DNA of 7,681 nucleotides from CBDUXZ01 sp965371325 [NCBI: uncultured bacterium] (GTDB taxonomy: Bacteria; JAUYMQ01), in assembly GCA_965371325.1 (NCBI GenBank), contig CBDUXZ010000082.1, positions 1-7,681 of the forward strand, written 5' to 3'. Each line of letters starts with the position of its first letter. Positions within the stretch are counted from its first letter, which is position 1. This document shows, piece after piece, positions 1 to 7,681 of this stretch. The notes below the pieces were generated by a model that was not told the DNA's origin, made no database searches, and saw only the letters and a program-made list of their open reading frames with translations. The position numbers were made by a program, and so were the translations under genes.

Positions 1-695
1 CGAAGGAATCCCGGGTTGGACTGATTGAGTCGGCCGATGGCGGGACTCTCTTTCTCGACGAGATAGGCGATCTGCCGCCTTCCACCCAGGTGAAGCTCCT
101 GCGCGTGCTCCAGGAGCGCGAGATCACGCGGCTCGGCGGGAACCGCCCCATCCGCGTCGATGCCCGCATCATCTCGGCCACAAACAAGAATCTCGAGAAG
201 CTCCGCGATGAAGGTTCGTTCCGCGAAGACCTCTACTATCGCCTCACCGCGTTTTCGCTCTACCTGCCGCGGCTTCGATCGCGGGGAGATGATATTCAGC
301 TTCTAGCCGACTATTTTCTCGCGCAGTTTGCTGAAACCGACAAGAAGAACATTTTGGGGTTTTCCCCCGAGGCGGCAGAAGTGCTGATGGCCTACAGCTG
401 GCCCGGAAACGTGCGGGAGCTGGCAAACGAAGTTCATGGCGCCGTCGCCCGCGCCGAGCCGGAGGGCTTGATCGAGCCGAAGCATTTTTCCGCTAATTTG
501 CAGGACCTGGGCGATCTCATGCTCCTTGCCTCCCACAGGTCGGGCGCACTCAGCGAGGTCCTTGCCCGGGTGGAGCAGTACATCATTAAGGACAAGCTTC
601 AGCAGCACGGGGGCAACCGTACGGCCACGGCGAAGAGCCTCGGGATTTCGCGCGTAACCCTCCATCAGAAGATGTCCAAATACGGTATTGTGTAG
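1..695 (+). CDS. sigma54-dependent transcriptional activator (NtrC family), 3' part
   Basis: Partial gene: codons are in frame from base 3 and the start lies left of the window. The 230 visible residues are the second half of a sigma54 AAA+ activator, which uses ATP hydrolysis to open promoters held by sigma54 RNA polymerase. Seen directly: Walker B GGTLFLDEIG (visible residues 13-22), FREDLYYRL with the arginine-finger region (about 73-81), sensor II WPGNVREL (133-140), and a C-terminal Fis-type helix-turn-helix from GGNRTATAKSLGISRVTLHQ (about 203) to the end. The opening residues, R-V-G-L-I-E-S-A-D-G-G, are what normally follows the sigma54-contacting GAFTGA loop, so that loop should lie just outside the window. 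The N-terminal sensory domain is also outside, so the signal and gene name cannot be given. A sigma54-type promoter and paired dyads downstream suggest that it controls the next genes. Confidence 0.95.
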   Translation, partial: KESRVGLIESADGGTLFLDEIGDLPPSTQVKLLRVLQEREITRLGGNRPIRVDARIISATNKNLEKLRDEGSFREDLYYRLTAFSLYLPRLRSRGDDIQLLADYFLAQFAETDKKNILGFSPEAAEVLMAYSWPGNVRELANEVHGAVARAEPEGLIEPKHFSANLQDLGDLMLLASHRSGALSEVLARVEQYIIKDKLQQHGGNRTATAKSLGISRVTLHQKMSKYGIV

Positions 696-716
696 ACATT
701 CCAGCCACCATCGGGG

Positions 717-734
717 CGTAAGCATTTCCTTACA
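717..734. promoter_or_regulatory. dyad copy 1, possible activator-binding site
   Basis: GTAAG (718-722) and CTTAC (729-733) form an inverted repeat around a 6 bp centre, CATTTC. The 18 bp block matches the block at 831-848 at 13 of 18 positions, including the outer GTAA and TTACA bases and the TTTC in the centre. It lies 22 bp after the activator stop codon and about 225 bp upstream of the predicted sigma54 start. Two copies with the same spacing suggest one protein binding both. The adjacent bEBP is the natural candidate, by inference only. Confidence 0.5.
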
Positions 735-751
735 CCCTACCTGTCACATTC

Positions 752-770
752 CTGACCGCTCAGCGGTCAG
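752..770. promoter_or_regulatory. 19 bp perfect palindrome (operator or weak terminator)
   Basis: CTGACCGCT and AGCGGTCAG are exact reverse complements around one central C. As RNA this is an 8 bp stem with a 3 nt loop. It lies 57 bp after the activator stop, so it could help end that transcript, but no T run follows directly (the next bases are TCGATAATAG; a T run only comes near 796). A GATAAT hexamer at 773-778 lies just downstream, so the palindrome could also overlap a promoter and act as an operator. The sequence does not decide between these. Confidence 0.45.
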
Positions 771-830
771 TCGATAATAGCCCGAATATATAGCGTTTTT
801 TAGCTTAGAGATGCCTCCGAGGAATTAAAC

Positions 831-848
831 TGTAAATTTTTCTTTACA
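831..848. promoter_or_regulatory. dyad copy 2, likely upstream activator site for the sigma54 promoter
   Basis: TGTAAA and TTTACA are a perfect 6 bp inverted repeat around TTTTTC, in AT-rich DNA that contrasts with the GC-rich surroundings. The centre is about 111 bp upstream of the start predicted for the sigma54 promoter, in the usual range for NtrC-type enhancer sites (roughly 80-150 bp). It resembles the dyad at 717-734. Use by the neighbouring activator is inferred. Confidence 0.55.
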
Positions 849-923
849 ATTTGGATGGTTCCCCGCCAGCACCTCCACCCAGCATCTCCCTTCCAGCCGG
901 GCTTTAACCCGAACCAGGTCCTC

Positions 924-940
924 TTGGCACGATCCTTGAA
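924..940 (+). promoter_or_regulatory. sigma54 (-24/-12) promoter
   Basis: TTGGCACGATCCTTGAA matches the consensus TGGCACG-N4-TTGC closely. The -24 GG is at 926-927, and exactly 10 bp separate it from the -12 element at 938-939. The only departure is GA instead of GC at -12. Transcription would start near 951, giving a leader of about 340 nt before the first RHH gene. The activator gene and a dyad at the usual enhancer distance lie directly upstream, which supports the call. The -12 mismatch may weaken the promoter. Confidence 0.75.
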
Positions 941-1205
941 GTGACCTGAAAGTGGAGATGGTAATCCCGAAACCGGAGGAAAAGAAGCGACGACAAGGCC
1001 CGGGGGTTTCTACAGGGAGCCAGGGCGAGATAAAGAAATGTGGCAGGCATCCAGGGAGCGCCTTTTGGCGGACAGGGGCGCCGCGGATGCCGCCCGGGAG
1101 GAAGCAAAGACTCAGGCTTCCCCGCCCTGGCCCCCTCAAGACCCCGTCGGCGTTTCACCCCCGGCGCAGGGGAACGACGGAAAGCCCACATCTCCAACCC
1201 GACAA

Positions 1206-1240
1206 CGGGCCGGCGGTGAACCTGGTTCACCGCCGGCCCG
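1206..1240 (+). ncRNA. perfect 16 bp hairpin in the long leader
   Basis: CGGGCCGGCGGTGAAC (1206-1221) pairs without a mismatch with GTTCACCGCCGGCCCG (1225-1240) around a CTG loop. It lies 49 bp before the first RHH start codon, inside the leader expected from the sigma54 promoter. No T run follows (TGCGTATCC), so it is not a standard intrinsic terminator. It could protect the 3' end of a short leader RNA, limit read-through, or affect translation of the next gene. No known RNA family is recognised. Confidence 0.5.
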
Positions 1241-1289
1241 TGCGTATCCGGCCCCTCGGGCCTGCATGACCCCTGGGCGGAGGGAGATC

Positions 1290-1493
1290 ATGGCCAAGAG
1301 GCGAACCATCCGGTTCACCGTGGCTGAACAAGATTTTCAGACGCTCCTTATGCTCGCCCGCACGGAGAGAATGAACATCGAAGATCTCTTTCGTGACTCG
1401 ATCCCCGAGGTTATCACCAAGTACAGTCTACTGGTTCGACGGACCAGGGGAAATACACGCTTCAGGGACGCGGATCAACGAGAGTCGGAGTGA
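1290..1493 (+). CDS. small ribbon-helix-helix-like protein, copy 1
   Basis: A 67-residue product. The start at 1290 is chosen because GGAGGGAG (1279-1286) stands just before the ATG and the RHH-like core starts directly after it. The frame stays open upstream to at least 1038, but that extension is Pro/Gly-rich and runs through the leader hairpin. An in-frame ATG at 1266 has no ribosome site. The core shows a short basic strand, RTIRFTV (about 5-11), then two predicted helices, EQDFQTLLMLARTERM and IEDLFRDSIPEVITKY, and a charged tail. This is the RHH pattern of Arc/CopG-type DNA-binding dimers, but it rests on pattern only and no family name is secure. The next gene is a paralogue (14 identities in 47 ungapped positions). 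I see no adjacent toxin gene. It is probably co-transcribed from the sigma54 promoter and could be an autoregulator. Confidence 0.8.
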   Translation: MAKRRTIRFTVAEQDFQTLLMLARTERMNIEDLFRDSIPEVITKYSLLVRRTRGNTRFRDADQRESE

Positions 1494-1570
1494 GCTGTGC
1501 CCGGGGATTCACTGCCCAATGACGCGGACAAAGGAATATCACCAGGTCACCGCCGTGTGGGAGGTTACCG

Positions 1571-1828
1571 ATGAAAGACAAGAGGAACACTACATCCGAA
1601 GCCCGCGACGACCGGGAGAGAGAACAGGCCCACATTGTCCGGTTTCGCCTGACTGATCCTGATTACCGGATCCTCGTCGGGCTGGCCCGTTACCATGGCA
1701 CCACAATCGCCAGGCTGATCAACGGCGCTCTACCGCTCATCATCGAGAAATACCGTGTTCTTCGGGCGCTCCATGTGCCCCCCGATGCACGTGTGGCCTG
1801 GCGCCGTTCCTCCGCCCGGCGTTTCTAG
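1571..1828 (+). CDS. small ribbon-helix-helix-like protein, copy 2
   Basis: An 85-residue product with a good ribosome site, GGGAGG at 1559-1564, six bases before the ATG. It lies 77 bp after the first RHH gene with no clear promoter between, so it is probably in the same transcript. A highly charged N-terminus (residues 1-19) precedes the core: strand HIVRFRL (about 21-27), helix 1 DPDYRILVGLARYHG, helix 2 IARLINGALPLIIEKY. It aligns without gaps to copy 1, sharing R-F, D, L-A-R, I, L, P, I and K-Y. The C-terminus is Arg-rich, ending RRSSARRF. DNA binding is inferred from the fold pattern. The pair could form homo- or heterodimers. The partner or target is unknown, although the AAA ATPase gene follows 120 bp later. 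Confidence 0.8.
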   Translation: MKDKRNTTSEARDDREREQAHIVRFRLTDPDYRILVGLARYHGTTIARLINGALPLIIEKYRVLRALHVPPDARVAWRRSSARRF

Positions 1829-1948
1829 TACCCGGCCCGTCGGAGAGGGAGCAGAGAGAGCGCCGCCTTAAAGTTCCGTCATCAGCCTGCCGATGCGCCG
1901 GATGTAAGGATCCAGTAGTTCCTCGGGATCCATAACCGAAGGCGCGCC

Positions 1949-3481
1949 ATGAATCCCGGTCCCCGGACCATCGGCTTCCGCAACGAACTCAAGCGGTTGA
2001 TCGCCGCGAAGTGCACCATCATCCAGCTCGAAACCTATGAGGAGGAACGCGCCGAACGGCTCCTTGCTGAGGTTGCCGCGAGCCTGTTCGCACGCCCCGT
2101 TCCCATCATGCGGTGGACCTGTACGGAGGGACTTACCGGGCCCGAAGGCCTGATGCCCGAGACCCGCGAGCCGCAAGCCGTGCTCGACTACATCCTCTGC
2201 AACGATGAAGCGGCGATCTTCATTCTCGAGGACTTTCATCCCTACCTCGATGGCAGCCCTCACCTCGTGAGGCGGCTTCGCGATCTGGCGAGGCGCTGCG
2301 CGACGAACTACGTGACCGTTGTCCTCGTGGGCCCCAGCGCGCAGCTTCCCGAAGATCTCCACCGAGACGTCACAGCCCTGGACGTACCTCTCCCGGACGA
2401 GAAAGAGATAGGGGTGATGCTTGACCGTGTGCTGAAGGAAACATCGAGAAACGCCTCGATGGCCGATGACCTTTCGCCCGAGCAGAGAATTTTGATCTCC
2501 CGGGCGGCGCTCGGACTGACCGAGCGTCAGGCCGCGGAGGCGTTCCGGAAGGTGTTCGCGAGCAAAAGCGGCCCGGATGACAGCCTGGCGCGGATGGTGA
2601 TCCAGGAGAAGCGTCAGCTCGTCCGGAAAGCCATCGCGCTTGACTTCATCGAAGAGTATCCAACGCTGGATGAGGTGGGAGGCCTCGACAACTTCAAAGC
2701 GTGGCTCGAGAAACGACGCCTGGTCCTCGGCGAGGGCGCCCGGCAGGCGAACATTGCCCCGCCGAAGGGCGTGCTTCTTACCGGTGTGTCGGGTTGTGGA
2801 AAGAGTTTTTGTGCCAAAGCGATCGCAAGCTTCTGGCAGCTCCCGCTCATGCGCTTCAACATGGGAGATCTCTACACTTCGACCTCGGGAATCTCGCCCG
2901 AGGAGGCGATGCGTCAGACCATTCGGGTCGCTGAGACTGTGGCTCCCTGCGTCCTGTGGATTGACGAGATCGAAGCCGGCGTTTCCATCAATACGCAGAA
3001 GGCCGGACAGGGCTCCGCCTCACGCGTTTTCGCCAGCTTCCTGAACTGGATGCAGGAGAAGCGCGCTTTCGTTTTCGTGGCAGCCACGGCGAACGTGATC
3101 GAACTCCTCCCTCCGGAGATCTTGCGCAAGGGGCGGTTCGACGAGATCTTCTTCGTCGGTCTCCCCGGTCAAGAGGAAAGGTTGGAGATCTTTCGCATCC
3201 ACCTCGCCAAGGCAGGACAGGATCCCGCAAAGTTCGATCTGGCTGCGCTCGCTAAAACGTCGAACGGCTTCAACGGGGCCGAAATCGAGCAGGTTGTCAC
3301 GGGCGCCCTTGTCGAAGCGTTCAACGCGCAGCGGCCTCTCGGCCAGAACGATCTCGTGGTCAGCACCGGCACGCTGGTTCCCCTCTCGGTCACCATGCGC
3401 GAGGAGATCGGCAGAATGGAGCGCTGGGCGCACTCCCGGGCCACCATGGCTTCCGCACCGAAGGGGACGGGGAGTAGATAA
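1949..3481 (+). CDS. AAA family ATPase, Ycf46-like
   Basis: A 510-residue cytoplasmic ATPase. The start is fixed because an in-frame stop lies at 1916 and the ATG at 1949 is the first start after it; its ribosome site is weak (GAAGG). The N-terminal half (1-200) resembles the degenerate first ATPase domain of Ycf46-type proteins: RNELKRLIAAKCTIIQLETY near the start and FILEDFHPYLD (91-101) in place of Walker B, but no P-loop. The C-terminal AAA domain is complete: EVGGLDNFKAWLEKRR, Walker A GVSGCGKS (279-286), Walker B VLWIDEIE (335-342), sensor 1 ATANV with N382, and arginine-finger motif RKGRFDE (393-399). Ycf46 proteins are known from cyanobacteria, plastids and other bacteria, with no firmly agreed substrate. 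Here it follows two RHH genes by 120 bp and may share their sigma54-controlled transcript. A remodelling role on a protein-DNA complex would be inference only. Confidence 0.92.
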   Translation: MNPGPRTIGFRNELKRLIAAKCTIIQLETYEEERAERLLAEVAASLFARPVPIMRWTCTEGLTGPEGLMPETREPQAVLDYILCNDEAAIFILEDFHPYLDGSPHLVRRLRDLARRCATNYVTVVLVGPSAQLPEDLHRDVTALDVPLPDEKEIGVMLDRVLKETSRNASMADDLSPEQRILISRAALGLTERQAAEAFRKVFASKSGPDDSLARMVIQEKRQLVRKAIALDFIEEYPTLDEVGGLDNFKAWLEKRRLVLGEGARQANIAPPKGVLLTGVSGCGKSFCAKAIASFWQLPLMRFNMGDLYTSTSGISPEEAMRQTIRVAETVAPCVLWIDEIEAGVSINTQKAGQGSASRVFASFLNWMQEKRAFVFVAATANVIELLPPEILRKGRFDEIFFVGLPGQEERLEIFRIHLAKAGQDPAKFDLAALAKTSNGFNGAEIEQVVTGALVEAFNAQRPLGQNDLVVSTGTLVPLSVTMREEIGRMERWAHSRATMASAPKGTGSR

Positions 3482-3742
3482 CGTTCTCTGTGCTGTTGGT
3501 CGCGTAGTCTGCACCGTCCCATCGCATCCATCCTTGCGCGTTCATTCTTCTCAGAAGCTCCCGTCTCGGATGGACATTGCTTCGGTACTTTCCCCTGAGG
3601 GTTTTGCGACGATTTCGTGGTGAGCGCCGGGAGCGTCCCGGCGGCACCAATTCTGCGGATTGAATGCCGACCCAAAGATGTGGCGATACCGTGACGCGAA
3701 GGAGAGGTTCACGGGGCGGGAGGGGGGCTGAAGATGCGACGA
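3482..3742. other. 261 bp gap between convergent genes
   Basis: No gene is supported here. It lies after the AAA ATPase (plus) and the basic-tail protein (minus), so terminators are expected. The best structure is CGCCGGGA-GCG-TCCCGGCG (3625-3643), an 8 bp perfect stem with a 3 nt loop but no T run. TCCATCC (around 3530) and GGATGGA (around 3579) could pair over a longer loop. A G-rich patch at 3713-3727 has three G runs. None is a clear terminator. Confidence 0.4.
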
Positions 3743-4357
3743 TCAGGCCAGGCGCATAACCTTGAAAACGGTGTCCTGCTCTCTGACCCGATCTTCGACG
3801 TGCAGGCCGATCACGTCGCCGCGGCGGGCGATCTCGATCGGAGCATGCTCAATCTGCATCGAAGTCACGTACTGCCGCAGGTTGGTCGTATGCCCCTTGA
3901 TGCGGATCAGATCGCCTATGGCGAGGGGTTCCGCCGTAATCTCAATCGCCGCGGCCTTGGGAATGGGAAAGAAGTGCATGATCTTTCCGACCTCAACGAG
4001 CGTCTCTTTGGTCCCGACGGGAGGGGCGGGCCGCGGCGGGGGGCCAGCCGACGCCTTCGATGGGGGCGTAACGGGCTTCGGGGCCACCTTGGAGCGGGCC
4101 GTCTTCCGCTTCGTCGCGCGTTTTGTGACGCGCTTTTTCGCGGGCTTCGTCGCGCGTTTGACCTTCCTCTTGGTTGCCCGCTTCTTTGTCCGTGTCCCGC
4201 CCGGCCGCGCCCGTTTCGTCTTGCCGGTGGAGCGAGCTCTCTTCCGCTTCGTCGCGCGTTTTGTGACACGCTTTTTCGCGGGCTTCGTCGCGCGTTTGAC
4301 CTTCCTCTTTATCGACTGCTTCCTTCCCCCACTTGCCCTCTGCTTTCTCGCAGCCAT
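3743..4357 (-). CDS. basic-tail protein with C-terminal EF-Tu domain-2-like beta-barrel
   Basis: A 204-residue cytoplasmic protein. The ATG at 4357 has a good ribosome site, AAGGAGAGG, just upstream. Residues 1-90 are almost entirely Lys, Arg, Ala and Thr, like histone-H1-like or AlgP-like bacterial tails, and contain a 23-residue unit twice (17-39 and 63-85). A Pro-rich linker follows (91-115). Residues 123-203 form a small barrel: VGKIMHFFPIPKAAAIEI, then GDLIRIKGHTTN, SMQIEH and GDVIGLHVEDRVREQD. This matches the stand-alone 'translation elongation factor-like' proteins related to EF-Tu/IF-2 domain 2; there is no GTPase domain. The tail should bind nucleic acid non-specifically, perhaps rRNA or DNA, which is inference. 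It is divergent from the ABC-class ATPase gene. A TTGAAA-N16-GATAAT promoter would give a leader of about 160 nt. The plus-strand open frames here are shadows caused by the repetitive, GC-rich tail. Confidence 0.88.
   Translation of the reverse strand: MAARKQRASGGRKQSIKRKVKRATKPAKKRVTKRATKRKRARSTGKTKRARPGGTRTKKRATKRKVKRATKPAKKRVTKRATKRKTARSKVAPKPVTPPSKASAGPPPRPAPPVGTKETLVEVGKIMHFFPIPKAAAIEITAEPLAIGDLIRIKGHTTNLRQYVTSMQIEHAPIEIARRGDVIGLHVEDRVREQDTVFKVMRLA
4102..4171 (-). repeat. 70 bp direct repeat, copy B
   Basis: It is identical to 4240-4309 except for one base (4130 G against 4268 A on the plus strand). The offset is 138 bp, exactly 46 codons, so reading frame is kept. It encodes residues 63-85 of the basic-tail protein. 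Inside each copy the block CTTCGTCGCGCGTTT occurs twice, so the unit itself arose by shorter duplication. The near-identity at DNA level points to recent duplication or gene conversion and to likely length variation between strains. Confidence 0.9.
4240..4309 (-). repeat. 70 bp direct repeat, copy A
   Basis: Partner of 4102-4171, encoding residues 17-39 of the basic-tail protein. The single difference, in GTGACACGC against GTGACGCGC, is silent (Val-codon third position on the minus strand), so both copies give the same peptide. Confidence 0.9.
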
Positions 4358-4526
4358 GACGCCTCTCCTTCAGATCCGGCGCCCCCGTCGCGAAGGGGCA
4401 CCGGGATATCGGAACAATCTGGGAATGCTGGCGCGCGGCACCGGGCCAGGTGAATCGCGGCGAGACCGCGCACCCTCCTCCTGCCGGATGGGCCTATTGC
4501 CGACGAAGCCGGTGGATTACTGCGCT

Positions 4527-4554
4527 ATTATCCACTCGGAAGCCGGGTTTTCAA
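4527..4554 (-). promoter_or_regulatory. sigma70-type promoter for the basic-tail protein gene
   Basis: Read on the minus strand, TTGAAA (4554-4549) and GATAAT (4532-4527) are each 5 of 6 to consensus with a 16 bp spacer. The start would be near 4520, leaving a leader of about 160 nt. That length leaves room for leader-level control, but I recognise no known element there. Confidence 0.5.
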
Positions 4555-4569
4555 TTGAATCGTTGCCCG

Positions 4570-4581
4570 CTCGTGCACGAG
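4570..4581. promoter_or_regulatory. 12 bp palindrome between the divergent promoters
   Basis: CTCGTGCACGAG is fully self-complementary. It ends 8 bp before the plus-strand -35 and lies 15 bp upstream of the minus-strand -35, so a bound dimer could affect both. GCATTTTTT follows, so a weak terminator is another reading, but no plus-strand transcript is expected upstream. Confidence 0.4.
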
Positions 4582-4588
4582 GCATTTT

Positions 4589-4617
4589 TTGACAGGCCCC
4601 CGGCGGAGGGGTAGGTT
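4589..4617 (+). promoter_or_regulatory. sigma70-type promoter for the ABC-class ATPase gene
   Basis: A perfect -35, TTGACA (4589-4594), is followed after exactly 17 bp by TAGGTT (4612-4617), which is only 3 of 6 to the -10 consensus. The start would be near 4624, about 50 nt before the ATG at 4676. The poor -10 suggests a weak or activator-dependent promoter. Confidence 0.45.
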
Positions 4618-4675
4618 CGCGCCGGGTGAGGGCTGTTCGACCCCGCCCGCTGTCCTCCGTTTTCCTGGATAGAGC

Positions 4676-6385
4676 ATGGATCGCCTCAGAGCAACACTCA
4701 AGCGAATAGATGGGCGGGGATACAAGGCCTACCAGGATATTGTGGGCCACTACCGCGGGTCCTCCTTCAAGCTCCTCATCGATCACGTGCAGCCCGATCC
4801 CTTCGCGCGTCCCACGGGGCTGCGCATCCAGATCCAGACGCGGGTCGCCCAATTCCCCCCGGATCTCCATGATACCCCCTCACGCAGCACGGCTCTCGCC
4901 GATCTCCTCGCGCGACGGTTTTCGCGAGCCCTCGACGACGGGAAGGGAGAGGGTGACGGCGGGGGGTTCCGGGTTTGCGCAGGTAAGCAGACCGTGATCC
5001 CCCGCACAGCGGTTCTCATCGAGCATGGAAGCCTGGAGGCGCGTCTGACACTGAGCCTTCCGGCCAGAGGGCGCCGCACTCTGGGAAGAGAGGCTACCGC
5101 GCTGCTCTGCAGCAGGCTTCCGAAGGCAGTCGAGGAGTCGCTCCTCATGGGGGCATATCCGGCGGAGGAGCTGGAAGCCTGGGTCCGGGCAAATAACAAT
5201 CAGCAGGCCCTTCGCGGCGCCCTGGAAGGACTCGGGCTCGTTGCGTTCGTTGCAAACGGATCGATCCTGCCGCGTCGGAGCGGCATTGACGACCGGCCCC
5301 TCGGGGAGAACGCCGTCCCGTTCGAATCACCCCCCTCCCTCGAAGTAGAAATCTCTCTTCCGGAAGGGCGATCCGTCCGGGGCATGGGCATACGCCGTGG
5401 CGTTACGCTCATCGTCGGGGGAGGCTATCACGGAAAGTCGACCCTCCTCTCGGGCATCGCCCGCGGCGTGTACGATCATATTCCAGGCGACGGGCGTGAG
5501 CTGGTCGTCACCGTGCCGGAGGCGATCAAGGTCCGGGCGGAGAGCGGACGGAGCGTGGCGGGCATTGACCTTCGCCCATTCCTCGGCGAGCTTCCCGGGG
5601 GGCGCAGCACAGCGGACTTCAGCACACAGAACGCCAGCGGTTCCACGAGCCAGGCGGCCGCTATCATCGAATCACTCCAGATGAACGCCCGGTTGCTCCT
5701 TCTCGACGAGGACACCTGCGCCACGAATTTCATGGTGCGCGACGCGCGCATGCAGGCCCTCGTCCCGAACAAGCTGGAGCCCATCACCCCCTTCATCGAC
5801 AAGGTTCGCTCTCTCTTCGACGGACGGGGCGTGAGCAGTATCCTGGTCATGGGAGGGGCCGGCGACTACCTCGATGTCGCAGACTGCGTAATTCTGATGG
5901 ACAACTACCGGGCCGTGGATGTGACGCATCGGGCCCGTCTGATCGCGCGCAGCCACCCCACCGGGCGCGAATCTCCCGGCAAGGGGCCCTTCGGCGAGGT
6001 TACGGCCCGGCTTCCCGATCCGGCGAGCCTGCGCGCGTCGAAAGGGCACCGGGAGGTGCGCATAGATGTACGAGGTCCCCACACGCTGATGTACGGGCGG
6101 GAATCCCTCGATCTCACGGCATTGGAACAGATCGAAGAGGAGGCGCAAACACGGGCCATCGGATGGGCGATTCATCTCATGGCGTCGAAGCATCTGCGCG
6201 CTTCAGTCTCCTTGCGCCGGGCGGTCGAAGCGGCCGTGGACGAAGTTCGACGGCGGGGCCTGGATGCCCTCACACCATTCCCCGTGGGCGATCTCGCCCT
6301 CCCGCGAGCGCTTGAAATTGCCTCGGCGGTGAATCGCATTCGCAATCTCCGGATCAAACGCCCGGCGCCCGCGGAAGAGTCCTGA
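4676..6385 (+). CDS. predicted ATPase of the ABC class (COG3044-type)
   Basis: A 569-residue cytoplasmic protein that looks complete for its family. The ATG at 4676 has a weak ribosome site (GGAT, 6 bp away), and the family's N-terminal motif starts within a few residues of it. Seen in order: IDGRGYKAYQ (about 12-21), HVQPDPFARPTGLRI, LPARGRRTLGREA, Walker A GGGYHGKST (248-256), the family signature NASGSTSQAA (319-328) in the place of the ABC signature, Walker B LLLLDEDTCATNF (D344, E345) and MGGAGDYLDVADCV where other ABC proteins have the H-loop. There are no membrane segments, so it is not a transporter. Proteins of this class are widespread and poorly understood; the trypanosome member MRB1590 is linked to RNA editing and suggests RNA binding. 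The divergent neighbour with an EF-Tu-like barrel and basic tail fits an RNA or translation link, by inference. Confidence 0.93.
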   Translation: MDRLRATLKRIDGRGYKAYQDIVGHYRGSSFKLLIDHVQPDPFARPTGLRIQIQTRVAQFPPDLHDTPSRSTALADLLARRFSRALDDGKGEGDGGGFRVCAGKQTVIPRTAVLIEHGSLEARLTLSLPARGRRTLGREATALLCSRLPKAVEESLLMGAYPAEELEAWVRANNNQQALRGALEGLGLVAFVANGSILPRRSGIDDRPLGENAVPFESPPSLEVEISLPEGRSVRGMGIRRGVTLIVGGGYHGKSTLLSGIARGVYDHIPGDGRELVVTVPEAIKVRAESGRSVAGIDLRPFLGELPGGRSTADFSTQNASGSTSQAAAIIESLQMNARLLLLDEDTCATNFMVRDARMQALVPNKLEPITPFIDKVRSLFDGRGVSSILVMGGAGDYLDVADCVILMDNYRAVDVTHRARLIARSHPTGRESPGKGPFGEVTARLPDPASLRASKGHREVRIDVRGPHTLMYGRESLDLTALEQIEEEAQTRAIGWAIHLMASKHLRASVSLRRAVEAAVDEVRRRGLDALTPFPVGDLALPRALEIASAVNRIRNLRIKRPAPAEES

Positions 6386-6444: not shown

Positions 6445-6996
6445 TCAGCGAACGTTCACGCCCACGAATACGAACTGCTTGTCCACGGGCGCCGCCGCCA
6501 GCTTGGCCGCCAGCTTTTCCTTCTCGAACTCCGCCACCAGGCAAGCCTGGAGCGCAGCCTGCGCATTCTCCAGTTTGTCTTCGGATCGGAAGGTGAGTGA
6601 CCCGTAGTCATAGCCAATTTTCACATTCCCAAAGTAGGTGGCCCGGCCCGCGCCCACATCAACAACAGGCTGATTGAGGAAAGCCTCCCGCTTCTCCTTG
6701 TTCTTCTCTTTCTTGTTCTCCACCACATCGAGCTTGATCTTGCCGGCGTCCACTTCGCCGGCCACATAGCCGTTCTTGCACATCTTGAACTTTTTCTTCT
6801 TCTTCTCGTTATCTCCCACGACGACGATGAGCTTGCCTTCGCCGCTCCAGGAGTCACCCATTACCTTGTCATTGAGCCGGCCAAAGATTATTCCCTTTTC
6901 TCCCGCAACCGCTGGCAGCGGCGAGAAGGCCACCGTCGATCCGAAAGCCACCAGGCATATAATCAGAGCCAATGAAGTCCATCCCGGAAATTTCAC
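6445..6996 (-). CDS. exported Lys-rich protein of unknown function
   Basis: A 183-residue product starting with GTG at 6996; GGAGG lies 11 bases upstream, a little far but acceptable. The N-terminus is a Sec signal peptide: MKF, a hydrophobic core LALIICLVAFG (9-19), and a likely cleavage site AVA|GE after residue 31. The Cys at 14 does not make a proper lipobox (L-I-I-C). The mature part is predicted mostly beta: IIFGRLND, KLIVVVGDN, a run of five Lys (EKKKKKFK), YVAGEVDAGKIKLDVVE, a Lys/Glu-rich loop, and VDVGAGRATYFGNVKIGYDYG, then an Ala/Glu/Lys-rich helix. The two G-rich strand pairs recall small secreted beta-sandwich domains, but I recognise no family. It is convergent with the ABC-class ATPase gene and has its own promoter, so no functional link is implied. 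Confidence 0.82.
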   Translation of the reverse strand: MKFPGWTSLALIICLVAFGSTVAFSPLPAVAGEKGIIFGRLNDKVMGDSWSGEGKLIVVVGDNEKKKKKFKMCKNGYVAGEVDAGKIKLDVVENKKEKNKEKREAFLNQPVVDVGAGRATYFGNVKIGYDYGSLTFRSEDKLENAQAALQACLVAEFEKEKLAAKLAAAPVDKQFVFVGVNVR

Positions 6997-7295: not shown

Positions 7296-7681
7296 CTATT
7301 TTCCACGGAATCTGGAATAATCTACCGGGCGCTTCTCCACGAAGGCGATCTTCCCCTCCGCGGCTTCTTCCGTGCCGTAGAAGAGGGAAAGGGCCTGGAA
7401 TCCGAGTTTCCCGATTCCCGCGATGGCCTCCGTGTCGGCATTCATCGACGATTTCACCATCGCGAGCGCCGTGGGACTTTTATCCAGAAGCTCGCGGCAC
7501 CAGAGGGCCACCTCCTCTTCGAGCGTCTCGTGAGGGACGACGCGGTTCACCAGGCCCATCTCGAGCGCTTGCCGGGCCGTGTACTGACGGCAAAGCATCC
7601 AGATTTCACGCGCCCTCTTCTCCCCCACAACGCGCGCCAGATACGCGGTGCCATAACCCGGATCAACGCTCCCCACACGGG
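7296..7681 (-). CDS. enoyl-CoA hydratase/isomerase family protein, MenB/BadI-like, 3' part
   Basis: Partial: the start lies beyond the right edge; 128 residues to the TAG at 7296-7298 are visible. These are the C-terminal half of a crotonase-fold CoA enzyme. Key blocks are RVGSVDPGYGTAYLARVVGE at the visible N-end, the helix KRAREIW, YTARQALEMGLVNRVVP, LLDKSPTALAMVKSSMNADT and the end YGTEEAAEGKIAFVEKRPVDY. The pattern, including the SxDxGYG Asp region and the final EKRxPD-like tail, is that of 1,4-dihydroxy-2-naphthoyl-CoA synthase (MenB) and its relative BadI, the ring-opening hydrolase of anaerobic benzoate breakdown. From memory, S-V-D-P-G-Y-G is closer to BadI and S-F-D-G-G-Y-G to MenB, so the subgroup is open. 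The oxyanion-hole half is not visible. Confidence 0.9.
   Translation of the reverse strand, partial: RVGSVDPGYGTAYLARVVGEKRAREIWMLCRQYTARQALEMGLVNRVVPHETLEEEVALWCRELLDKSPTALAMVKSSMNADTEAIAGIGKLGFQALSLFYGTEEAAEGKIAFVEKRPVDYSRFRGK

What the first reader, a model, noticed from the sequence alone, without database searches (positions are those of the whole stretch)
696..3481. sigma54-controlled cluster: activator, paired dyads, promoter, two RHH proteins and a Ycf46-like AAA ATPase
The order activator, enhancer-like dyads, -24/-12 promoter, RHH, RHH, AAA ATPase suggests one switchable module. The promoter spacing is exact and the second dyad sits about 111 bp upstream of the predicted start. I know of no described system that couples twin RHH proteins with a Ycf46-type ATPase under sigma54. 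Coupling and function are inferred.
Basis: partly seen in the sequence, partly recalled or inferred. Interest (0 to 1): 0.6.

Follow-up and report, generated by a model that had tools for sequence, protein, structure and literature searches.

The report
Sigma54-switched structured RNA with twin repressors
Next to a two-component regulator gene lies a sigma54-type promoter that should switch on a folded RNA together with two small, probably DNA-binding proteins; the neighbouring ATPase gene, thought to be part of the set, is probably just a neighbour.

Summary
The listed features are present: an NtrC-type activator end (3-695), a -24/-12 site (924-940), dyads and two small RHH-like genes. One close relative (L001/L070, a Deltaproteobacteria MAG) shows what travels together: histidine kinase, NtrC-type response regulator, the same promoter (18 of 19 bases kept), RHH1, RHH2. 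There the AAA ATPase (79% identical) lies about 4 kb on, behind two other genes, and RHH1/RHH2 were not detected in the 66 other AAA loci (54 of which hold at least 1 kb upstream), so the AAA gene is probably not part of the module. Folded separately, the two copies agree in 37 pairs (45%) at 58% identity, against 0-18% in 19 control windows; alignment z is -8.1. A strong hairpin (1205-1241) follows. No Rfam model reached its threshold, and of 386 sampled genomes only the relative's has it. Most likely this is a dedicated two-component/sigma54 switch for a structured RNA leader (or processed sRNA) plus an RHH pair, laid out like CbrAB-crcZ but with no detected homology to that RNA. Two sequences support the RNA; its function is inferred.

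The parts
3..695 (+). C-terminal part of an NtrC-type response regulator (the start lies outside the window); the full-length relative has receiver, sigma54-activation and Fis-type HTH domains
   Evidence: full relative L070 2819-4204; 79% identical over 229 residues
717..734 (.). upstream site A, CGTAAGCATTTCCTTACA (GTAA-N8-TTAC core), candidate binding site of the response regulator
   Evidence: matching site in L001 808-825 is TGTTAGGAATTCCTTACA
753..769 (.). dyad TGACCGCTCAGCGGTCA inside the best-conserved block of the intergenic region (749-778, 28 of 30 bases kept); role unexplained
   Evidence: the pattern TGACCGNNNNNCGGTCA occurs at only this one place in G001
831..848 (.). upstream site B, TGTAAATTTTTCTTTACA, same geometry as site A; only partly kept in L001 (TGTATCGATCCCTTTACG)
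924..940 (+). -24/-12 (sigma54-type) promoter TTGGCACGATCCTTGAA; predicted start about 951
   Evidence: 18 of 19 bases (924-942) kept, while 852-922 just upstream keeps 22 of 71
953..1196 (+). conserved structured RNA domain closed by a long-range 5'-3' helix (953-960 with 1189-1196)
1205..1241 (+). strong hairpin (-36.6 kcal/mol) with no U run after it; stem kept in L001 (-30.2 kcal/mol) while the loop changed in sequence and length
1279..1283 (+). GGAGG ribosome-binding site of RHH1, kept in L001
1290..1493 (+). RHH1, 67 aa, ribbon-helix-helix-like protein
1571..1828 (+). RHH2, 85 aa, apparent paralogue of RHH1 (30% identical in alignment A2)

Best explanation
This is a dedicated, probably single-target signalling cassette. 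A PAS-domain histidine kinase phosphorylates the NtrC-type response regulator (seen complete in the relative; only the regulator's end lies in the window). The regulator binds the paired GTAA-N8-TTAC sites about 110 and 225 bp upstream of the start and activates the sigma54 promoter at 924-940. The transcript begins with a folded RNA domain of about 245 nt closed by its own ends, then a strong hairpin, then the genes of two ribbon-helix-helix proteins. The RNA is most likely the leader of the RHH1-RHH2 message, either gating its expression or being cut off and kept as a stable RNA. The RHH pair would act downstream as DNA-binding regulators. Shown by comparison of two genomes: gene order, promoter and RNA structure are conserved. 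Inferred: phosphorelay, site binding, start point, the RNA's job, RHH targets. The AAA ATPase is a neighbour, not a part.
For: Gene order kinase-regulator-promoter-RHH1-RHH2 in L070/L001. Promoter 18 of 19 bases kept against 22 of 71 in 852-922. rpoN is present in the relative's genome G001, and TTGGCACRNNNNTTG is enriched there (11 matches, 1 for the reversed control). Of those 11 places only this one has the paired upstream sites within 300 bases, and the site A pattern with one mismatch occurs at only one other place, with no well-spaced sigma54 site found near it. RNA: alignment fold z -8.1, 0 of 200 column shuffles as good, against z -1.8 to +0.8 in 11 control windows; separately predicted folds share 37 pairs (45%) at 58% identity, against 0-18% in 19 overlapping control windows at 56-83% identity; 8 of 62 pairs change on both sides and stay paired, 1 of 500 shuffles as high, slid versions 0-1. 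Gaps of 1, 2, 2, 2, 3, 3 and 4 bases argue against coding. No sigma70-like match in 600-3600 (0.6 expected by chance).
Against: Only two sequences carry the RNA. The structure tested was derived from those same two sequences. The antisense strand also scores, though less: alignment z -4.3, 13% shared pairs and shuffle z -3.1 (window) and -1.6 (L001), and the model matches it weakly (17.8 bits). In the column-shuffle test the count of double changes alone was not unusual (8; shuffles mean 5.4, maximum 10). The -12 element is GA rather than GC; 9 of the 11 sites in G001 read TTGC. Site B is poorly kept in L001 (12 of 18 bases symmetric in the window, 8 of 18 in L001). The RHH call has no sequence-family support and weak fold matches. 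No sigma70 match is weak evidence, since the scan uses one consensus with spacers of 16-18. No transcript data.
Confidence: 0.58

Rival explanations
1. The RNA is a separate small RNA gene, as in CbrB-crcZ or LuxO-Qrr: transcription from the sigma54 promoter ends at the 1205-1241 hairpin, and RHH1-RHH2 are made from another promoter or by read-through.
For: A strong conserved hairpin directly after the folded domain, with a changed loop; the RNA begins within a few bases of the predicted start and closes on itself; crcZ lies downstream of cbrAB and is driven by sigmaN and CbrB (PMC8871633, passages).
Against: No U run follows the hairpin in either genome (sequence); no sigma70-like match before RHH1 (one consensus only); Hfq and CsrA, partners of known sRNAs of this layout, were not found in the relative's genome (its completeness is not given).
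Confidence: 0.3
2. The first reader's module: activator, promoter, RHH1, RHH2 and AAA ATPase form one sigma54 operon.
For: Same strand and order in the window, with 120 bp between RHH2 and the AAA gene.
Against: In L001 two ORFs separate RHH2 from the AAA gene; RHH1/RHH2 not detected in 66 other AAA loci, 54 of them with at least 1 kb upstream; conservation drops to 29 of 120 bases in 1829-1948; neighbours of the AAA gene vary: the commonest shared neighbour families were in 12 of 67 loci.
Confidence: 0.1
3. The intergenic region is ordinary GC-rich sequence; its folding reflects base composition, and the conservation reflects a short divergence time.
For: G+C 64-67%; 48 of 62 pairs never vary, most of them G-C; the antisense strand also scores.
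Against: Nearby non-coding stretches keep only 31% (852-922) and 24% (1829-1948) while 953-1196 keeps 59%; controls at similar or higher identity do not share folds; dinucleotide-preserving shuffles give z -4.0 and -3.2 for the core, -3.6 and -5.1 for the whole leader.
Confidence: 0.07

Closest known systems
CbrA-CbrB-crcZ of Pseudomonas (PMC8871633, passages seen)
   Same: Kinase gene, then NtrC-type regulator gene, then directly downstream a sigma54-dependent RNA gene switched on by that regulator.
   Different: crcZ works through Hfq/Crc; here no Hfq or CsrA was found in the relative, the RNA is GC-rich and highly folded, two RHH-like genes follow it, and no Rfam model reached its gathering score. 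CbrB sites are described there as non-palindromic subsites; here the candidates are GTAA-N8-TTAC dyads.
LuxO-Qrr and GlrR-GlmY sigma54 sRNA systems (recalled, not from a call)
   Same: An NtrC-family regulator drives a small RNA from a sigma54 promoter.
   Different: As recalled, those RNAs act with Hfq or RapZ and are not followed by an RHH gene pair; the Rfam searches showed no relation.
PrsK-PrsR PEP-CTERM regulators (TIGR02915; PMC1569441, passages seen) and AtoC
   Same: The two best-scoring named families for the complete regulator; PrsR is tied to sigma54 sites upstream of PEP-CTERM genes.
   Different: The regulator scores 428.5 bits, under the TIGR02915 cut-off of 502.6, and 440.4 under AtoC's 714; the adjacent target here is an RNA/RHH unit.
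CopG/Arc/AmrZ-type ribbon-helix-helix proteins
   Same: Extended start then two helices; fold matches include AtaR, CopG, Arc, ParD, AmrZ, MatP.
   Different: No Pfam or NCBIfam hit; a proline kept in all four copies in the second-helix region; tandem paralogues.

Membership tests
NtrC-type two-component sigma54 activator | Receiver, sigma54-activation and Fis-type HTH domains | tested here: met
   Complete in the relative L070 (PF00072, PF00158, PF02954); the window holds the last two only
NtrC-type two-component sigma54 activator | Partner histidine kinase beside it | tested here: met
   L070 758-2728 has PAS, HisKA and HATPase domains; in the window this lies off the left end and was not seen
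sigma54 promoter | TGGCAC-N5-TTGCW with exact spacing (consensus recalled) | tested here: inconclusive
   TGGCAC and spacing met and conserved, -12 reads TTGAA
CbrAB-crcZ type cassette | sigma54-driven RNA directly downstream of the regulator gene | tested here: inconclusive
   Conserved sigma54-type site and conserved RNA structure in that place; transcription itself not testable here
CbrAB-crcZ type cassette | RNA is CrcZ-like and works through Hfq/Crc | tested here: not met
   No Rfam match at gathering score; no Hfq match in the relative's genome, whose completeness is not given
ribbon-helix-helix | Sequence-family match | tested here: not met
   0 hits for both proteins in Pfam (E up to 1) and NCBIfam (E up to 0.1)
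ribbon-helix-helix | Fold | tested here: inconclusive
   Foldseek lists consist mostly of RHH entries, best E 0.37 and 0.74; models pLDDT 77 and 73 from 4-row alignments
Intrinsic terminator after the RNA | Hairpin followed by a U run | tested here: not met
   Strong hairpin, no U run; not listed by the terminator scan
Ycf46-type AAA ATPase | AAA domain with Ycf46-family relatives | tested here: inconclusive
   AAA domain met; relatives in cyanobacteria and many others; no library here named Ycf46

The most novel reading that the evidence does not exclude
A new class of large structured bacterial RNA, made only when a dedicated two-component system fires sigma54, works as a regulatory RNA in its own right within a single-target module, perhaps partnered or read by the twin RHH proteins encoded on the same transcript.
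Probability: 0.3. Interest if true: 0.68.

Novelty: new variant of a known kind. Interest (0 to 1): 0.52.

Why it matters
Kinase-regulator-sigma54-RNA cassettes such as CbrAB-crcZ control broad physiology in pseudomonads. Another RNA in the same layout, without detected homology to crcZ, in a sparsely sampled lineage with no detected Hfq or CsrA, would suggest that the layout arose more than once and would offer a new folded RNA family to study. It also corrects the reading that joined an AAA ATPase to the module.

Tried and rejected
Coupling of the AAA ATPase to the RHH pair: rejected from L001 gene order and from 66 other loci, 54 of them with at least 1 kb upstream. A coding leader (the ORF 1038-1493 would extend RHH1): rejected, since in L001 that frame is open for only 74 codons and most of the leader's gaps are not multiples of three. 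An anti-Shine-Dalgarno switch in which the 3' strand of the closing helix pairs with the RHH1 start: not distinguished from chance (rank 56-77 of 296 in the window, 43-69 of 290 in L001). The 753-769 dyad as a widespread operator: one place only in the relative's 4.1 Mb. CsrA or Hfq titration: neither found in G001. PEP-CTERM regulation: the regulator scores under the TIGR02915 cut-off. Searches that found no further copy: RHH1 in viral contigs, three DNA blocks in viral contigs, 700-1830 in plasmids, RHH1 in 78 genomes, RHH1/2 in 386 and the RNA in 386, the last three hitting only G001. The genome searches score a capped number of candidates per genome and one search used stricter filters, so weak copies could be missed. 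The complete regulator in 78 genomes at E up to 1e-120 hit G001 and one other, G028, at 46% identity, not followed further. The phylum search covered G001 alone. Mended rows: the RHH2 codon-position row was out of register by one residue and was redone; the upstream side of the three minus-strand sites was the wrong one and was redone for all 11; my note says 13 control windows, the right number is 11.
Full report
What is in the window. The ORF list and family scans show the end of a sigma54 activator (3-695), two small ORFs (1290-1493, 1571-1828), an AAA ATPase (1949-3481), a lysine-rich protein on the minus strand (3743-4357), an ABC-class ATPase with PF09818 (4676-6385), a short protein on the minus strand (6445-6996) and the end of a MenB/BadI-like protein of the enoyl-CoA hydratase family (7296-7679). 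No whole genome is held for the window.

The promoter and the upstream sites. TGGCACGATCCTTGAA at 925-940 is the only such match in the window and none is expected. GTAA-N8-TTAC occurs twice, at 718-733 and 832-847, against 0.01 expected. A third dyad, TGACCGCTCAGCGGTCA, lies between them at 753-769. The scan for sigma70-type promoters found none in 600-3600, where 0.6 are expected by chance.

The relative. A search of genome contigs with the AAA protein gave 67 loci. Only in L001, from a MAG named Deltaproteobacteria bacterium C24_metabat.bin.90, were the activator at high identity (79%), RHH1 (65% over 55 residues) and RHH2 (53% over 83) found. The whole contig (L070) shows a PAS-type histidine kinase gene and then the complete regulator with receiver domain, upstream of the promoter. 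The regulator is closest to the AtoC and PEP-CTERM regulator models but scores under both cut-offs.

The AAA gene is probably not part of it. In L001 a minus-strand ORF (1931-3460) and a plus-strand ORF (3527-5905) stand between RHH2 and the AAA gene. tblastn over the 67 loci and profile searches over these and 3 viral loci found RHH1/RHH2 only in L001; the best other profile scores were E 0.21 and 0.34. Of the 66 other loci, 54 hold at least 1 kb upstream of the AAA gene, so 12 say little. Four of them (L004, L010, L011, L021) hold an NtrC-type regulator at 37-42% identity, downstream of the AAA gene on the other strand. The commonest shared neighbour families of the AAA gene were in 12 of 67 loci. 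On plasmids 1617 records match the AAA protein; the 15 listed are 35-41% identical. In viral contigs 3 loci match it.

Conservation between promoter and RHH1. In the alignment of window and L001, 852-922 keeps 22 of 71 bases and 1829-1948 keeps 29 of 120, while the -24/-12 site (924-942) keeps 18 of 19, the block 749-778 28 of 30, 720-739 (site A) 14 of 20, 829-851 (site B) 15 of 23, 953-1196 145 of 244 and the hairpin 28 of 37. So the leader is kept about as well as the RHH coding regions (119 of 204, 149 of 258).

The leader is a folded RNA. Each leader folds better than dinucleotide shuffles (z -3.6 window; z -5.1 L001; 0 of 100 as good each). Both form a long-range helix closing the domain from its first bases (953-960 with 1189-1196 in the window), then the hairpin. 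The consensus fold has 87 pairs with none broken, 9 with changes on both sides. Against column shuffles the core has z -8.1 with 0 of 200 as good; 11 control windows (4 activator, 5 AAA, 1 upstream, 1 RHH1; 100 shuffles each) lie between -1.8 and +0.8; the antisense strand of the core has -4.3; the number of double changes in the core (8) was not unusual among the shuffles (mean 5.4, maximum 10). As a test that does not use the consensus, each sequence was folded alone: 37 pairs agree (45%), 6 of them changed on both sides; 19 overlapping control windows agree in 0-18%, the antisense strand in 13%. Core shuffle z is -4.0 and -3.2, antisense -3.1 and -1.6. On the named structure 8 of 62 pairs covary, 1 of 500 shuffles as high, slid versions 0 or 1; 48 of 62 pairs never vary. 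The hairpin stem is kept although its loop changed in sequence and length, which suits an RNA hairpin better than a fixed-spacing protein site. Neither genome has a U run after it.

Known RNA families. No Rfam family reached its gathering score in the window (E up to 1) or in either leader (E up to 10); the weak hits there look like chance, for example CC3664 with 21.3 bits where 60 are needed. A covariance model R1 found only G001, the relative's genome, in 386 sampled genomes (stricter filters, at most 5 candidates scored per genome in the rows shown). A search of 386 genomes found RHH1/RHH2 only in G001. The phylum search for G001 covered that one genome, so its lineage appears isolated in the held set.

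A dedicated switch. The relative has rpoN. Of its 11 TTGGCACRNNNNTTG matches (1 in the reversed control), only the one at this locus has the paired upstream sites within 300 bases; 9 of the 11 continue as TTGC, this one and one other as TTGA. The site A pattern with one mismatch occurs at one other place, with no well-spaced sigma54 site found in the 3 kb around it, and the 753-769 dyad pattern at no other place. This suggests one target, within the limits of pattern searches.

The RHH proteins. No sequence family matches, and a profile against PDB sequences gave 9 weak hits, led by lumazine synthase at E 0.04, none named as RHH. AlphaFold models (pLDDT 77 and 73, four-row alignments) give helices after an extended start, and the Foldseek lists consist mostly of RHH proteins (AtaR, CopASO, CopG, Arc, ParD, AmrZ, MatP) at weak E-values, with some unrelated entries. 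Codon-position counts show selection on the proteins.

Mechanism and rivals. I take the RNA to be the leader of the RHH message because the ribosome-binding site and RHH genes follow with no other promoter seen and no terminator U run. A separate sRNA is the main rival, by analogy to crcZ, which lies downstream of cbrAB and is driven by sigmaN and CbrB (PMC8871633, passages). Hfq and CsrA were not found in the relative, so titration of those proteins is less likely.

Print search. Five phrases for sigma54/RpoN-dependent sRNA gave one paper (listing). A search for ribbon-helix-helix, sigma54, structured RNA and response regulator, three of four, gave 18 papers, 12 listed, none describing this arrangement by title or start of abstract. 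A Ycf46 and AAA search gave 10 papers, 8 listed, none on this arrangement by title or start of abstract. PMC1569441 and PMC3333781 were seen as passages. These searches cover open-licence PMC papers only.

Noticed in passing
window 3743-4357 (minus): A histone-H1-like lysine/arginine-rich protein that holds one block of about 23 residues twice (seen by eye in the translation) before a less basic C-terminal part.
   Followed up: no
window 749-778: The best-conserved block of the intergenic region (28 of 30) combines a 17-bp dyad with a GATAAT just after it; it may be an operator over a second promoter or the end of the regulator message. Role unexplained.
   Followed up: partly
window 4676-6385: Full-length ABC-class ATPase with PF20446, PF09818 and MRB1590_C domains; that MRB1590 belongs to a trypanosome RNA-editing complex is recalled.
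   Followed up: no
L075 1501-1515 (G001:C70): The same sigma54 core TTGGCACGTTCCTTG lies between an ORF that looks by eye like a histidine kinase and one that looks like a regulator-kinase, suggesting sigma54 control of another signalling gene in this lineage.
   Followed up: partly
G001 (genome of L001): No Hfq and no CsrA match in this 4.1 Mb genome of unstated completeness, and it was the only genome covered by the search of its phylum.
   Followed up: partly
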